DNA of 64,000 bases. It comes from Paramecium tetraurelia (Eukaryota; Ciliophora; Oligohymenophorea; Peniculida; Parameciidae). A program made the translations under genes and the position numbers. The first letter of the stretch is position 1; the number at the start of each line of letters is the position of its first letter. Location: assembly GCF_000165425.1 (NCBI RefSeq), contig NW_001799627.1, positions 2,701 through 66,700 of the forward strand. Reading direction: 5' to 3'. This document shows, in pieces, positions 41,599 to 48,063 of the stretch. The notes beneath the pieces are model-generated. The model ran no database searches and had not been told where the DNA came from. It saw only the letters and a list, made by a program, of their open reading frames with translations.

Positions 41599-42431
41599 AT
41601 GGCTTAAGTATTTAATTCAAAGGTCAGCATTATCACCAAATCGGAAATCAGATATGAAGGTACTATTTATTAAATTAATCCTCAATAACAAACTATTGCA
41701 TTGAAAGATGTACGTTCATTTGGAACGGAGGGAAGAAGACCTGGTATTATTTTTAAATAATTATTTAAGATCATGAAATACCCCCCAATTAATAAAGTTA
41801 CGATATTTTGGTGTTCAAGGCAGCTGAAATTAAAGGCTTCAAGACTTTGGAAGAGAACAAGCCTGAGGATATTAAATTAGAAAATGTCAAATAAGAAAAC
41901 CAATCCCAATAAGCATAGCATTTCCAACCACCTTAAAATATAGAATAAATAGAGCAGTAGCAAGAATAAAAAGGGTAATTTCAAAATAATTTCTCATAAA
42001 ATCAATAAATAAAATCTAATGGAACAAATCCCAGAGCTTTTAATTTTGAAGAAATGCTTCAAAAAGCGAATGAAATTGAGAAGATTAAAAAGTAAGAGGT
42101 GAAACCTAAGTATAATCCTACTTCATTTTTCGATTCTCTTTCAACCAGTACTCAAAAATAAGAGAGATAAACTCAATAAAGAAATCAAAATTAGATTGAC
42201 ACTGATACTTTTGGTAATTTTTATAAATAAAGATAACATAATAACAATAATAATAACAATGGATAAAGGAGAAATAACAACAACAATAATAATAACAATA
42301 ATTATGATAAAAATAATAATAAAAATTATAGAAGGAATAATAATGATTAATAAAGAGTTGTTTATGTAGAAAAACAATCTTTAGAATAATATTAGTAATA
42401 ATCATAATAACCACAATAATAATAGCAATGA
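41599..42431 (+). CDS. LSM14/Scd6/RAP55-like P-body protein
   Basis: Translational repressor or decapping activator. One 26-nt intron, 268 residues. The N-terminal LSm14 domain (SIITKSEIRYEGTIYQINPQ, ALKDVRSFGTEGRRP, YDILVFKAAEIKGF) is followed by a Gln-rich linker. The hallmark FFD box (YNPTSFFDSLSTS) and TFG-like box (DTDTFGNFYKQ) come next. The C-terminus, usually RGG-rich, is here a run of Asn-rich and Arg-containing repeats (RRNNNNNNNNNYDKNNNKN) and poly-Gln. It probably acts with Dhh1/EDC-type partners in cytoplasmic mRNP granules. A CCR4-NOT subunit lies in the same window. Confidence 0.92.
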
Positions 42432-42532
42432 ATATCAAATTTGTTATTATTTAAATAAAATATACAAATCAGTACTAAACTTTAAATTGCCTATAATTCT
42501 TTCATATTTTAATCAATATATAATTTAAATAA

Positions 42533-43528
42533 ATGGTAAAATATTGCTAAAGTTGTAATACATAGAAAGCCTTTATGGTAAGACCAAAGACTGGAAACCT
42601 TATTTGCCAAAATTGCTTTTTTTAAGCATTTGAGGATGAGATTCATCACACAATCATATCTACATAAATGTTTAAGCCTGGTGAAAAGATTGCCATAGCA
42701 GCTTCAGGAGGCAAAGATTCCACAGTCTTAGTTCACGTTATTACTCTACTAAATAAGAAGTATAATTATGGATTGCATTTATACTTATTATCAATTGATG
42801 AAGGAATTAAGGGATATAGAGATGATTCTCTAGAAACAGTTAAATAGAACTAAATCACCTATGATTTGGAATTAAAGATCTTATCCTATAAAGAACTCTT
42901 TAATTGGTCAATGGATGAAGTTGTAGCACAAATTGGTCTCAATAATAATTGCACATATTGTGGAGTTTTTAGGAGATAATCATTAGATAGAGGTGCAATA
43001 TAATTGGGAGTTGATAAAATTATAACTGGACACAATGCGGATGATATGGCAGAGACATTTCTAATGAATCTTTTAAGAGGTGATATCTTTCGATTGCCAA
43101 AATCTACTGCCATAATCACAGGTGATGATGGAGACAACGGAATTGCCACATTGCCTAGGTGCAAACCTTTCAAATACACTTATGAAAAAGAGATAGTAAT
43201 GTATGCACATTATAAAAAACTCATTTATTTCAGTACTGAATGCACTTACTCTCCTAATGCTTTTAGAGGACATGTTCGAGAATTAATTAAGAATTTAGAA
43301 GCCATAAGGTACATATTTTATTATATATTTTATAGACCTAGTGCAGTAATTGATTTAATTCACTCTTGCGAATAATTGGATGCTCCAAACCAAAACTAAA
43401 AATTACCTCAAAAACAATTGTGTTAAAAATGTAATTTACTATCATCGAATAAAATATGTAAGGCATGCACATTACTCGAATCATTAAATTAAGGAAGAGC
43501 TAAATAAATATTGTAAATTTAGGAGTGA
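42533..43528 (+). CDS. CTU1: Cytoplasmic tRNA 2-thiolation protein CTU1/NCS6
   Basis: Adenylates and thiolates U34 of tRNA-Lys/Glu/Gln together with CTU2 and URM1. The 322-residue product shows the N-terminal zinc pairs (CQSCNTQKAF, LICQNC), the PP-loop ATP motif [11 protein letters not shown] (about residue 55), [53 protein letters not shown] and a C-terminal CxxC zinc ribbon ([17 protein letters not shown]). All catalytic elements are intact. One intron of 27 nt lies before [13 protein letters not shown]. It is a multiple of three and has no in-frame TGA, so retained transcripts would code for nine extra residues. Confidence 0.95.
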
Positions 43529-43674: not shown

Positions 43675-46416
43675 ATGGATAATTTTTAAGTATAAGATTT
43701 ATGCTATGATAACATTAAATGTCATGATTGGCAATGTTAGAAAAAACATCCTCGGTGCTTTGCAGGGATTTGTATTTAAGGTTTAAATGATGATGAAGAA
43801 TGTAATATTCAAAATTGTCAATTATTTCATGTGTCCTCCGATACACTTTCTAATGAAATTATGATAAATGGGTTTTATAGATACAATATATGTAAAAAAA
43901 AAAATTGTGAGGTCAACACTTGTAGGTATTTACATCCAACTTGGATTAAGGATTATTGTGTAGATTTTTTTTAGAATAAATGTAAATAAAATTGTAATAA
44001 TCATCTAAAATGGGCTTAGATGAAGAACTAAATATATGAAAAATATGAAATTTAAAATTTAAATCCAGATGTACTCTGCAAAAAAGATAAGTGTAAATGT
44101 TAAAAACATTTGGCAAATATCGATGATTTCTGCATAGATTATTTTTAAGGTATATGTCCTTTAATTGAATGCTCTAAAAAACATGTATTTTGGGAAGAAC
44201 TCAAATCGAATAGGAAATTATAATTTGAGGAACCAAAACTAAAGCCATGTAATAAAAAGAATGTCATACTTAATTAAGAAGGGATTGAGAATAACTCTTA
44301 AATTAAGGTTATGATTGATGAATAGGAATTAAAAAGAATGCATAAAGCATTATAACAATAAAATATTATCGATATTATATTTATAATGGATTGTACAAAA
44401 ACTATGGATCATTGGATTTAATAATGCCATTCACAAATGGCTAGTATAATTGAAAAGTTTCAAAATTAAAACAACAAATACATAACTCGAGTTGGGTTTG
44501 TCGGATATCGCGATATTATTATTAAAAAATAAAAGAGTATTATCTAGTTGGATAGAAAGAGTATGATTTCTTCAGAGGTGAATGATTAATTCAATTAAAA
44601 CGATTTTGAGATTGTTGATAAAAATCATGTTGTTTTTCATGACTTAACTGATAAAATTGATTCAATTAAAGAATTTATTAAGCAACAAAAGGCATATGGT
44701 GGGGGAGATGAAGCTGAAGATGTCGTAGCTGGAATAGAAAAAGCATCATAATTAAATATTTCCAAACATCAAGATACTGTATTGATAACATTTTTATTTG
44801 CTGACTCTCCTTGTCATGGTAAATAATATCATGATATTGACGATGATGATTTTATGGATAAAATTCCACTAGATACTTTAGAAGATGTAATGAGAAGATA
44901 CAGAAAAATTAAAACGAATAATTTTTTCTTTTGTTCAAGAATTTCATAAAAAACAGATAAAATGTTCACCATTATGAAATCTGTATTTCCAGAAGTTTCA
45001 ATAACTGATCATATTACCCCAGAGGATTTTCCTAATTTGATAAGTTTTTCATTATAAGATAGCTTTTCAAAAATAAGCAAGAGTCAACTATTCAAGCCAA
45101 TAGAAATCAAAGCATAATCCATAAAATCTAAGTATATTGAATATGATTGTAAAACAATTGAAGATAGGATAAAATTTTGGGGGAATTTTGTTCAGGTTTG
45201 TTAATCACAAGAGAGAGTTAATCACACAATTATAAAAATTAATTAAAATTAAGAATAAATATTAGAAAATGAAGACGGAGTTAATTCATATATATTTAAA
45301 GTATTTGATGTTATAAATAATCAAAATTTAGTCGCTAAAATTCCTAAAAAGATAATTCAGGAATATCAACAAAAAGAATAAATTTTGAAGTAAAGTAATT
45401 CAAATGAAAAAGTAAAATTGTCAGAAGAGTCAATATAAGAAGCTAAAAAGTTCGCATAATCAAGATTTATTTCATAAACTATAGCTAAGCAATTGGCAAA
45501 AATTTATAGGGAAAAAGTCTAAAATTTAGCTGGATCACCTCCCATCTTTTATGTATCACCCATGATATATGTTCTTTCCTCGCCCTTTTATGGTTTGGAC
45601 TATATTTATGCAGAATCCTATATCAATCTACCAAACATTTAATGGAAAAAATATTCAAATAACTTATAGTATATAAGCCCAGAGTATTATTACCTTTCTT
45701 CATTCAGTCATTTTACTTATGAAGAAACAGGTAAATAGTTTTTGATCGCAGATTTATAAGGGAAATTAAATATTTTTAGCGATCCATCAATTTAGAGTCT
45801 TGGAAACTATAATCAAAATTTAAATAACGATACAACTAATCTCAATCATGCAGGTATTGCCAATTTTATTCAGGCCCATGAAAAATGTAGCTTCATTTGT
45901 TAGAAATTGTAGTTAGAAAATACAGCTGCTATAACGTAATTTGATGAGACAAAATGGGAATTCAATGAGACCTAAGAATTATCAATTATATGTGAGACGT
46001 GTGATGAATATTAACAAATTAAGCTTATTGATTATGTCAATAATGGCCATAAAAAATGCTAATAATGCAAGGAACTCGAACAAGTTATACATGAAGTATA
46101 ATGCAGGTGTTGCTATGAAAATTTTAAAACTCCGATGAATCAGTAATTGAGAATAGGAACATTAGTAGGAAAATGTGAAGGTTGTAAGGTAAACTGTAGA
46201 TAACCAAATCTAATTTGTTGCTATTGTAAAATTCATTGCAAATTAAAGGTTTCATCTGAGAATATTGATGGCAAATAGATTTATTTATGCAAGGAAGGAA
46301 AGTAATATTTATCTTCATTAAAATGTAAAGTATGCAATTCTTTATATTCCTTTGACAAATTCCTAACTGAGACATATTATGAATAAGGTATATATAAGTG
46401 CCAAAAGTGTAATTGA
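43675..46416 (+). CDS. CCCH zinc finger - VWA - alpha-kinase - Cys-rich fusion
   Basis: 913 residues in one exon (2742 nt). Residues 1-190 carry Cys/His clusters of CCCH type (CHDWQCQKKHPRCFAGICI, CKKKNCEVNTCRYLHPTW, FFQNKCKQNCNNH, CIDYFQGICPLIECSKKH). Residues about 230-445 are a von Willebrand A domain of the vwkA type (IIFIMDCTKTMDHW with a partial MIDAS, GFVGYRDI, GGGDEAEDVVAGIEKA, LFADSPCHG). Residues about 495-745 form an atypical alpha-kinase domain (FIYKV-type entry, FYVSPMIYVLSS, YAESYI, YEETGKQFLIADLQGKLN, FSDPSIQS, LNHAGIANFIQAHEKCSFIC). Residues 770-913 hold another 20 or so cysteines in CxxC pairs. Known family members (Dictyostelium vwkA) lack the flanking zinc modules. The glycine-rich loop is poor (LGNYNQNLNN). 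Confidence 0.88.
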
Positions 46417-46769
46417 TGTTTTTTATAATCATTATAAAAAATTATGATTCTGAGTAAAATCTTATTATTATTCACATTTGTTTTAAACGACTTCTGAAAG
46501 GAATTACATGTCACACCAACAACATTTGCTCTATTGAAGGATTTAGTTGTTTCTAATTTGTAATTGAGTAATTGAGAGATCAATAGAAATGAATTTTACG
46601 ATTACATTGAATATTCTCAATTGAAAGGATGAAAATAGAGGATTGTCACAGATGATATATTCATCTGAATCATTCGAGTATTCCTTATTGTTTTATAGAA
46701 ACAGTAATGTGAAGTTGGGTTTGAGATTTATACTTTAAATAACACACTGTTATAAATATTATATATAAA
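46417..46769. other. Intergenic, no gene seen
   Basis: Between two co-directional genes. It holds the 3' flank of the alpha-kinase gene and presumably the promoter of the coiled-coil gene. No open frame or repeat of note. Confidence 0.5.
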
Positions 46770-48063
46770 ATGTCTTATTCATAAAAAAACTTTCTAAATT
46801 AACCATTCTACTCTCCAGCGAAATTTGAGAATGATTAAAAGGATTTGATGATTTCCTAATTGAAAGCCGAAAACTTTGAACTTAAGCAAAACGATAGGGA
46901 TTACTAAGAATTAGCTACTCATTTGAAATCGTTAGAACATAGGTGAAATCACATTTAATTTTAGATATAATATGTTACATGAAGAAAAGATGAGAAATGA
47001 AGTAGAATATCGAAATAGAAGTGATTAGACATTAAAGACTATTGCTAATTTGAGAAATGAAATTGATAATTTGAAATCCTAGTTAACTGAAAAGCATATA
47101 GAAAATTAGGAAATGAAAGCAGAGAATTTGGCATTTAAGGAGATAACAGAACATAGATCTTAAGAAAATCAGAGAGTGAAAAATGATATGGCTTTATTGT
47201 AAGAAAACAATAGAAAATTGTATGAAGAAAAGCTTAGATTAGAGACAGAATTATAAGCAGCAAAAGATGAAAGAAAGAGGTAAAGAATAAGAAGTATTAA
47301 ATGATAGACTGTTGCATGATAGAGAGTTATTGAATAATACATATGAAGATGTATTGGATAAATTGAATGAGAAGGAAAAGTAATTTTCTTAATTGTAAAC
47401 TGAATTTGATAATCTTGAAAAGCAAGCCCTTATTTATAAAGCAGATGTCGAAAATGTATTTTTTATTGGATTATCAAGATCAATAATGAGGTTAAATCTA
47501 AGAGTGAAAACCTCAAATATACAAGGATGCAATATTAAGAAGCTCAGAATTATATTTCGCAATTGCAAAATGACCTAGAGGAATTACATAAGCAGAAGGA
47601 GAAGTTTAAATAGGAGAGTTTGCTTTATCAAAAAAATTACTAGCAAGAGGCTGACACTTGCATGGAATTAAATGCCTAAGTGATTCAACTAGATCAAACA
47701 GTTAAACATCAAGAAAAGACAATAATCGATTAGAGGAATGAGATTGAGAGATTGAAGTCGATACATATGGAATGTCTGGAAACAACGGAAGAGTTGAGTC
47801 ATGAATTAGATTAAGCCAAAAGGATTAATGATTAATTGGAACATCAACATAGAGATGTATTTCATTGTACTTATGAATAGGTTATGGAGGAGTTGGATAA
47901 GTTGTCATTGACAGAGGAGTAAGCTGCAATGGCTAGGGCTAGCAAATACAAGGAATTGAAGACCAAATTGATAATGGGAACTAAGCAATTATAGTAGTTC
48001 TAATCTCCATTTAAGAGATTTTCTACAAACAAAAAACCTTTGCTGAAATAATATGATTTTTGA
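46770..48063 (+). CDS. Long coiled-coil protein
   Basis: 406 residues after introns of 22, 28 and 23 nt. Nearly the whole chain is predicted helix with heptad hydrophobics (LKTIANLRNEIDNLKSQLTE, EVKSKSENLKYTRMQYQEAQ, QRNEIERLKSIHMECLE). It ends in a short basic tail (QQFQSPFKRFSTNKKPLL). No head or catalytic domain. It is probably a basal-body, centriolar or cytoskeletal scaffold, inferred only from composition. Confidence 0.72.

What the first reader, a model, noticed from the sequence alone, without database searches (positions are those of the whole stretch)
43675..46416. CCCH zinc finger + VWA + alpha-kinase + zinc-ribbon protein
The intronless 913-residue protein fuses RNA-binding-type CCCH fingers to a vwkA-like VWA domain and an atypical alpha-kinase, with a further Cys-rich C-terminus. 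Known VWA alpha-kinases (for example Dictyostelium vwkA) act on contractile-vacuole and myosin biology and have no zinc modules. This layout would link an alpha-kinase to RNA or ubiquitin-like zinc functions. It is the best candidate in the window for an undescribed architecture.
Basis: partly seen in the sequence, partly recalled or inferred. Interest (0 to 1): 0.75.

Follow-up and report, generated by a model that had tools for sequence, protein, structure and literature searches.

The report
Paramecium kinase with RNA-binding-type zinc fingers
A Paramecium gene encodes one protein that joins RNA-binding-type zinc fingers to a docking domain and an unusual protein kinase, and relatives in other ciliates and in a water mould show that this is a wider, apparently undescribed kinase family, enlarged in Paramecium.

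Summary
ORF 43675-46416 (+, ciliate code) encodes 913 aa: CCCH-type fingers (about 10-170), VWA (230-470), alpha-kinase (480-752) and a Cys-rich tail (773-912). P. primaurelia (74%) and P. sonneborni (67%) orthologues align over 97-100%, and the same genome has seven more loci of this layout, one frameshifted, one cut by a contig end. The reading [quoted passage not shown] holds only in part: of 63 non-Paramecium alpha-kinase proteins found with one relative, 41 have a strict CCCH motif before the VWA (0.05 expected), 54 a CxxC tail, 39 both, Tetrahymena and Pythium among them. So this is a divergent branch of a wider family for which I found no description. Paramecium added fingers and tail cysteines and amplified the gene. 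Profiles of the last finger find Muscleblind RNA-binding fingers as best solved relatives (significant without Paramecium, weak with it); the first finger leans to Nab2, below threshold. Kinase, MIDAS-type and zinc residues are kept. Best reading: an RNA-tethered, probably active alpha-kinase; RNA binding and substrate are inferred. New variant of a known kind.

The parts
43675..46416 (+). coding sequence, 913 aa, table 6, TGA stop, no intron
   Evidence: orthologues P0002, P0003 and paralogues align along it
43702..43749 (+). CCCH finger 1 (C10 C16 C21 H25, CX5CX4CX3H, Nab2-like spacing)
   Evidence: each Cys in 11 of 12 rows (P0002 starts late), His in 12 of 12; Nab2-zf4 matches 6 of 7 own-genome N-termini, best E 0.0063; here residues 8-26, E 0.034, 14.4 bits against a cut-off of 20
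43771..43830 (+). CCCH finger 2 (C33 C43 C48 H52)
   Evidence: 11-12 of 12 rows; first spacer varies in length among paralogues
43891..43935 (+). CCCH finger 3 (C73 C78 C83 H87)
   Evidence: 12 of 12 rows
43957..44004 (+). irregular finger 4 (C95 C103 C107 H110)
   Evidence: C95 12, C103 11, C107 9, H110 9 of 12 rows
44077..44109 (+). irregular finger 5 (C135 C140 C142 H145)
   Evidence: 8, 8, 8 and 6 of 12 rows; may not be a finger
44131..44184 (+). CCCH finger 6 (C153 C161 C166 H170, CX7CX4CX3H), counterpart of the pre-VWA finger of other ciliates, Muscleblind-like
   Evidence: 12 of 12 rows; hhalign prob 67.1, score 29.1 against 25 non-Paramecium rows, best of 40 Cys-kept shuffles 21.3; PDB profile matches
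44362..45084 (+). VWA domain (230-470) with MIDAS-type residues D239 T241 T243, T325, D345, D377
44524..44619 (+). insert in the VWA (about 284-315) of this orthologue group
   Evidence: present in P0001-P0003, absent from the other 9 rows of the family alignment; pLDDT under 50 over 284-310
45112..45930 (+). alpha-kinase domain (480-752; Pfam 534-742): K555, E647, D693, Q695, D703 and zinc site H679 H735 C738 C742
45991..46068 (+). tail unit 1 (C773 C776 ... C795 C798)
   Evidence: the 8 Cys of units 1-2 are nearly invariant in 59 rows; best match is unit 1 of other ciliates, prob 72.9, score 21.9, highest of 20 Cys-kept shuffles 19.3
46102..46185 (+). tail unit 2 (C810 C813 ... C834 C837)
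   Evidence: best match is unit 2 of other ciliates, prob 88.5, score 25.0, highest of 20 shuffles 21.3; hairpin-helix pattern in both models
46195..46410 (+). tail extension seen only in the Paramecium rows of the alignments (C841, C848, C851, C855, C872, C884, C887, C909, C912)
   Evidence: 12 of 12 rows each, C909 in 11; homology of its last CxxC pairs to units 1-2 not supported; the long Cys-rich tails of P0082 and P0083 were not compared

Best explanation
The gene encodes a catalytically competent, RNA-tethered alpha-kinase. Shown here: one protein with the layout CCCH fingers, VWA, alpha-kinase, zinc tail, kept across Paramecium species and paralogues and, with fewer fingers and a shorter tail, in Tetrahymena, an oomycete and many environmental proteins; catalytic, MIDAS-type and zinc residues kept. 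Inferred: the fingers dock on RNA, the last one as a Muscleblind-type and the first as a Nab2-type finger; the VWA binds a partner through its metal site; the kinase phosphorylates a protein of the bound RNP or the translation machinery; the zinc tail behind the C-lobe holds or regulates the kinase. In Paramecium the finger array and the tail were enlarged and the gene amplified, which suggests diversified targets.
For: Alpha_kinase E 1.6e-30; fold matches to alpha-kinases and integrin-type VWA; K555, E647, D693, Q695, D703, H679, H735, C738, C742 present and kept in the family. CCCH pattern 0 of 20,000 shuffles. A profile of 7 own-genome N-termini has only three PDB matches up to E 10, two named Muscleblind-like 1 and 2e5s with nearly the same finger, all weak (E 0.3 to 0.81) and on finger 6. 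A separate profile of 10 fingers, hand-picked from the 25 non-Paramecium ones, has 22 matches up to E 10; 6 of its top 7 are Muscleblind-like chains, counting 2e5s, whose deposited name is a clone-type one (whole-chain E 4e-4 to 0.01; best single stretch 0.006). Nab2-zf4 is a sub-threshold match in 6 of 7 N-termini. Three relatives pass a Pfam CCCH cut-off along with VWA_4 and Alpha_kinase: P0030, P0071, P0051. 41 of 63 relatives carry a strict CCCH motif before the VWA, 0.05 expected.
Against: No zinc family matches the window protein in Pfam (sub-threshold Nab2-zf4 appears only when residues 1-200 are scanned alone). Of 15 motif-bearing relatives scanned, 3 pass a CCCH cut-off, 8 are below it and 4 (P0017, P0026, P0029, P0043) show no CCCH match. 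The fingers are modelled poorly both here (pLDDT blocks 47-76 over 1-180) and in Tetrahymena (blocks 36-51 over 11-50). Fingers 4 and 5 are irregular. The Paramecium profile's Muscleblind matches are not significant alone; finger 6 reads C-S-K-K-H where several ciliates and Muscleblind have C-K-Y-x-H. A viral glycoprotein sits among the top 7 (E 0.0055), so that E range is not clean. CCCH fingers can also bind proteins. No RNA, substrate or expression was tested.
Confidence: 0.5

Rival explanations
1. A vwkA-like kinase of the membrane or cytoskeleton: VWA and kinase act as in Dictyostelium VwkA (contractile vacuole, myosin), and the fingers and tail are protein-protein or structural modules.
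For: Same VWA-then-alpha-kinase core; VwkA binds calmodulin, affects myosin II and sits at the contractile vacuole system (PMC7079120 passages); Paramecium also has contractile vacuoles (general knowledge). CCCH fingers can bind proteins (general knowledge).
Against: Best solved relatives of the fingers are RNA-binding fingers, though the Paramecium match is weak. VWA alpha-kinases without either zinc module exist (P0010, P0018, P0021), so the modules are not needed for the core. The tree was rooted on P0018 by choice and is no evidence here.
Confidence: 0.25
2. A ubiquitin or redox device: the Cys-rich tail is an E3-like or zinc/redox-sensing module that controls the kinase, and the CCCH array is secondary.
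For: The tail is the more widespread zinc module: 54 of 63 relatives have at least 3 CxxC, against 41 with the finger, and its 8 core Cys are nearly invariant in 59 rows.
Against: No RING, UBP or other ubiquitin family in 6 tails scanned; weak sub-threshold hits go to varied zinc-ribbon or treble-clef models. This is inconclusive, not a refutation.
Confidence: 0.15
3. A gene-model or assembly artefact that joins two genes.
For: No transcript data were available.
Against: Alignment over 97-100% with orthologues in two other species and along five intact paralogues in the same genome; no in-frame TGA.
Confidence: 0.02

Closest known systems
VWA alpha-kinases (Dictyostelium VwkA type; PF25106 + PF02816)
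   Same: VWA domain upstream of an alpha-kinase, MIDAS-type motif, catalytic residues
   Different: The vwkA-like protein examined, Dendronephthya P0018, has no CCCH and no CxxC tail. The Dictyostelium protein itself was not fetched; PMC1420674 passages mention its VWA, and the word zinc does not occur in that main text.
CCCH-VWA-alpha-kinase proteins of Tetrahymena (P0060, P0062, P0063), Pythium oligandrum (P0070) and environmental eukaryotes (P0017, P0025 and most of P0026-P0058)
   Same: Same order of domains; the last finger and tail units 1-2 are counterparts by profile comparison
   Different: One to four fingers by my patterns and a two-unit tail with 6-11 Cys; Paramecium has four regular plus two irregular fingers and 18-25 tail Cys (P0006 shows 5 only because my pattern cut its tail)
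Muscleblind-like (MBNL) and Nab2 RNA-binding CCCH fingers
   Same: Spacing CX7CX4CX3H and CX5CX4CX3H; best sequence-profile matches
   Different: No kinase in those proteins (general knowledge); similarity limited to single fingers and partly below significance
EhAK1, eEF2 kinase, MHCK A, TRPM7 and ALPK1 kinase domains
   Different: About 20% identity; different accessory domains

Membership tests
Alpha-kinase (PF02816) | profile match above curated cut-off | tested here: met
   107.1 bits against 21.3, E 1.6e-30
Alpha-kinase (PF02816) | ATP lysine, metal/catalytic D-x-Q, catalytic D, zinc site H/H/C/C (roles recalled from known structures) | tested here: met
   K555, D693, Q695, D703, H679, H735, C738, C742; H679, C738 and C742 invariant and K555, D693, Q695 and D703 nearly invariant in 59 rows; H735 invariant in the 12 family rows
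Alpha-kinase (PF02816) | kinase activity | not testable with these tools
   needs an assay
VWA domain | profile and fold match | tested here: met
VWA domain | MIDAS DxSxS-type motif / T / D (motif recalled) | tested here: met
   D239-x-T241-x-T243, T325, D377; the other 9 family rows have DxTxS, T at the third place only in this orthologue group
CCCH zinc finger | C-x4-9-C-x3-5-C-x3-H pattern beyond chance and conserved | tested here: met
   four regular fingers, 0 of 20,000 shuffles, ligands in 11-12 of 12 rows
CCCH zinc finger | Pfam CCCH family above cut-off in this protein | tested here: not met
   none; Nab2-zf4 14.4 bits against 20 on residues 1-200. Over a cut-off only in relatives P0030, P0071, P0051 of 15 motif-bearing relatives scanned. 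In this protein CCCH is therefore assigned by motif, conservation and kinship, not by family model
Muscleblind-type RNA-binding finger | CX7CX4CX3H with significant sequence match | tested here: inconclusive
   whole-chain E 4e-4 to 0.01 for the finger profile without Paramecium, E 0.3 to 0.81 for the Paramecium profile
Muscleblind-type RNA-binding finger | binds RNA | not testable with these tools
   needs EMSA or CLIP
CCCH-VWA-alpha-kinase-CxxC-tail family (ciliates, oomycetes) | same domain order and homologous last finger and tail units 1-2 | tested here: met
RING / ubiquitin zinc domains | profile match in the tail | tested here: inconclusive
   no match in 6 tails scanned

The most novel reading that the evidence does not exclude
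Ciliates and oomycetes have an unrecognised class of RNA-sensing protein kinases built on the alpha-kinase fold: binding of RNA by the CCCH array switches the kinase, a counterpart by other means of PKR-type RNA-dependent kinases. Paramecium turned it into a multigene family with enlarged RNA-reading arrays, perhaps for translation control or for its developmental small-RNA and mRNP programmes.
Probability: 0.2. Interest if true: 0.8.

Novelty: new variant of a known kind. Interest (0 to 1): 0.47.

Why it matters
The roles of alpha-kinases (eEF2, myosin, channels, innate sensing; general knowledge) differ by their accessory domains. The accessory domains that one paper lists are channel, Ig, CaM, WD40 and ArfGAP (PMC4192601 passage). 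A conserved family that puts RNA-binding-type fingers before a VWA and an alpha-kinase would open a direct kinase-RNA link in ciliates and oomycetes, testable in Paramecium and Tetrahymena with standard tools. The Paramecium amplification gives natural variants of the finger array.

Tried and rejected
Two-gene or intron artefact: rejected. Architecture unique to this gene or to Paramecium: rejected. Third tail repeat: I expected the last CxxC pairs of the Paramecium tail to be a third copy of units 1-2; hhalign does not support it (u1-u3 score 14.2 with 9 of 20 Cys-kept shuffles as high, u2-u3 13.6 with 6 of 20, u3-t1 1 of 20, u3-t2 2 of 20; u1 against u2 is also no better than shuffles, 4 of 20). 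The crossed pairs u1-t2 (prob 42.0) and u2-t1 (56.4) also exceed their 20 shuffles, so the order of units rests on the higher scores of u1-t1 and u2-t2 alone. PDB search with the tail profile: one match at E 0.76, an MLL3-homologue construct, taken as chance.

Zinc modules in the other alpha-kinases of this genome: of 17 other loci scanned by motif, blind to introns, 7 show VWA motifs; CCCH-pattern hits occur in 2 (L035, L042), both judged spurious (one is a CQTC repeat, the other lies over 2 kb upstream of the kinase without a VWA motif). Limits of my patterns: one search's finger counts are low because of narrow spacing; with them the tree needs at least 6 changes of finger presence, so presence is patchy or patchily detected. 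P0006 entered the tail comparison as a fragment. In one search hhalign printed errors when writing merged alignments but returned the scores. The tree is a quick tree with long branches, so the place of the Paramecium clade in it is not used. One search scored only the 7993 candidates that share most words, so its counts are lower bounds.

Full report
What was checked. The window lies in a 69-Mb assembly (G000, contig C208) and the gene reads with ciliate code 6. Its closest named proteins are from Paramecium primaurelia and P. sonneborni, so I take it as a Paramecium of the aurelia group; the species is not known to me. The frame 43675-46416 gives 913 residues with no in-frame TGA. P. sonneborni P0003 aligns over 100% (67%) from its first Met. 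P. primaurelia P0002 aligns over 97% (74%); its deposited model lacks residues 2-24, that is the three Cys of finger 1.

Zinc modules. Residues 1-200 hold 20 Cys and 7 His. Four non-overlapping CCCH motifs occur against 0.077 expected, in 0 of 20,000 shuffles. Over 12 family rows N-terminal Cys keep 89% and residues other than Cys and His 37%; in the C-terminus 95% against 34%. Fingers 1, 2, 3 and 6 are regular; 4 and 5 are irregular and less conserved.

Family in this genome. A protein search of the own genome finds eight loci of this layout: the window's, five other intact ones of 886-903 aa on C58, C35, C138, C134 and C194, one on C11 with frame breaks at A-runs (real decay or sequence error, not decided), and one on C50 that runs into the contig end. 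One search lists 27 Alpha_kinase matches, which I group by hand into 24 loci; 7 of these 24 belong to this family (C50 gave no kinase match).

Family beyond Paramecium. A search with the 12-row alignment gave 18 proteins, including non-Paramecium P0017, which has a CCCH motif before its VWA. A search with P0017 gave 76 proteins, scoring only the best-sharing 7993 candidates. By precomputed Pfam 65 carry Alpha_kinase, 63 without the two Paramecium ones. Of these 63, 41 have a strict CX7-8CX4-5CX3H motif before the VWA (expected 0.05), 54 have at least three CxxC after the kinase, and 39 have both. The 22 without the motif may in part start late. Named members: Tetrahymena malaccensis P0060 and T. 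utriculariae P0062/P0063 (finger and tail), T. utriculariae P0068 (tail, no finger), Pythium oligandrum P0070 (finger and tail), Aphanomyces invadans P0075 (two fingers, no tail), a Litonotus sequence P0066 and Vitrella P0067 (tail, no finger). The fungal P0078 and P0081 and the green alga P0095 have neither by these tests. Most other relatives are unnamed metagenome proteins whose organisms I cannot state. Of 15 motif-bearing relatives scanned with Pfam, CCCH passes a cut-off in 3 (P0030, P0071, P0051), is below it in 8 (P0060 and P0070 by 0.1 bit) and is not listed in 4.

Homology of the zinc parts. Profile comparison of the Paramecium finger 6 region with 25 non-Paramecium rows gives probability 67.1 and score 29.1, against at most 21.3 in 40 shuffles that keep the Cys and His columns and 10.3 reversed. 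For the tails it gives 70.8 and 36.2 against at most 22.1 and 16.1. Tail units 1 and 2 match units 1 and 2 of 35 other proteins best (72.9 and 88.5, 0 of 20 shuffles each); crossed pairs are lower but also above their shuffles. The eight Cys of these units are nearly invariant in 59 rows. The rest of the Paramecium tail is an addition of unknown origin. In the tree of the VWA and kinase columns the branch to the 12 Paramecium rows has support 100; every row but Dendronephthya P0018 has CxxC pairs in the tail (2 to 9, P0006 one because my pattern cut its tail). The Tetrahymena model shows the two-unit tail with pLDDT blocks of 87-96, two hairpin-plus-helix units, but its finger at 36-51.

What the fingers resemble. 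A profile of seven own-genome N-termini has only three PDB matches up to E 10, all on finger 6: two chains named Muscleblind-like 1 and 2e5s, deposited under a clone-type name but with nearly the same finger (E 0.3 to 0.81). A separate profile of ten fingers, hand-picked from the 25 non-Paramecium rows, has 22 matches up to E 10; 6 of the top 7 are Muscleblind-like, 2e5s included (whole-chain E 4e-4 to 0.01; best single stretch 0.006). The other one of the seven is a viral glycoprotein at 0.0055, taken as chance; the rest are glycoproteins, ribosomal eL32 and a glycosidase. In Pfam, Nab2-zf4 is a sub-threshold match in 6 of 7 N-termini (best E 0.0063). Each alone is weak; together they point to RNA-binding CCCH types.

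How it most likely works. An RNA-docked alpha-kinase: fingers on RNA, VWA on a partner, kinase on a protein of that RNP or of translation. The domain layout is shown; kinase competence is strongly suggested; RNA binding is inferred; substrate and regulation are conjecture. Rivals are a vwkA-like cytoskeletal or vacuolar role with protein-binding fingers, and a tail-centred ubiquitin or redox role.

Literature. Ten searches of the open library. PMC3019232 (passages) states that P. tetraurelia has alpha-kinases, some with VWA; zinc finger and CCCH do not occur in its main text. PMC1420674 (passages) describes VwkA, WD40 alpha-kinases and one with ArfGAP. PMC4192601 (passages) lists channel, Ig, CaM, WD40 and ArfGAP. 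PMC7079120 (passages) gives VwkA's calmodulin binding and contractile-vacuole site. Alpha-type protein kinase with CCCH returned 0 papers. Alpha kinase with CCCH returned 34, of which 15 were listed; none of these by title or abstract start concerns such a protein, and none was read. Subscription papers and database annotations are not covered, so absence from print is likely, not proven.

Verdict. A real, conserved architecture and a new variant of a known kind, found to be a family rather than an oddity. Interest 0.47: the RNA-kinase link would surprise specialists but awaits a bench test.

Noticed in passing
window 42428-43528 (+): Upstream neighbour looks like a CTU1/NCS6-type tRNA thiolation protein: ATP_bind_3 E 1.5e-15 on 42536-43309 (the CTU1/NCS6 name is recalled), with a candidate 27-nt intron of Paramecium type at 43309-43335 that keeps the frame (seen, not tested).
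   Followed up: partly
window about 46600-48060 (+): Downstream neighbour reads by eye as long coiled coil spread over several frames, so probably one gene with short introns.
   Followed up: no
L014/L024 (G000:C11:11617-14288): A paralogue with the reading frame broken between three pieces, one break seen at a run of A; pseudogene or sequencing error not decided.
   Followed up: partly
L016 (G000:C50:238523-240245): A paralogue whose part after about residue 475 is garbled near the contig end; its closest relative P0016 of P. pentaurelia lacks an Alpha_kinase annotation, so this lineage may be losing its kinase.
   Followed up: partly
L032 (G000:C50:204881-205630): A weak extra match to residues 49-294 (23%, E 4.5e-6) with in-frame TGAs, possibly a relic of the family on the same contig.
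   Followed up: no
P0067 (Vitrella brassicaformis): An alpha-kinase with a CxxC tail but with a Tc5-transposase-type DNA-binding domain (E 8.8e-7, residues 190-242) upstream and no CCCH motif.
   Followed up: no
P0008, P0019, P0020: Environmental VWA alpha-kinases with a CxxC tail whose D-L-Q-G motif is degenerate, possibly pseudokinases.
   Followed up: no
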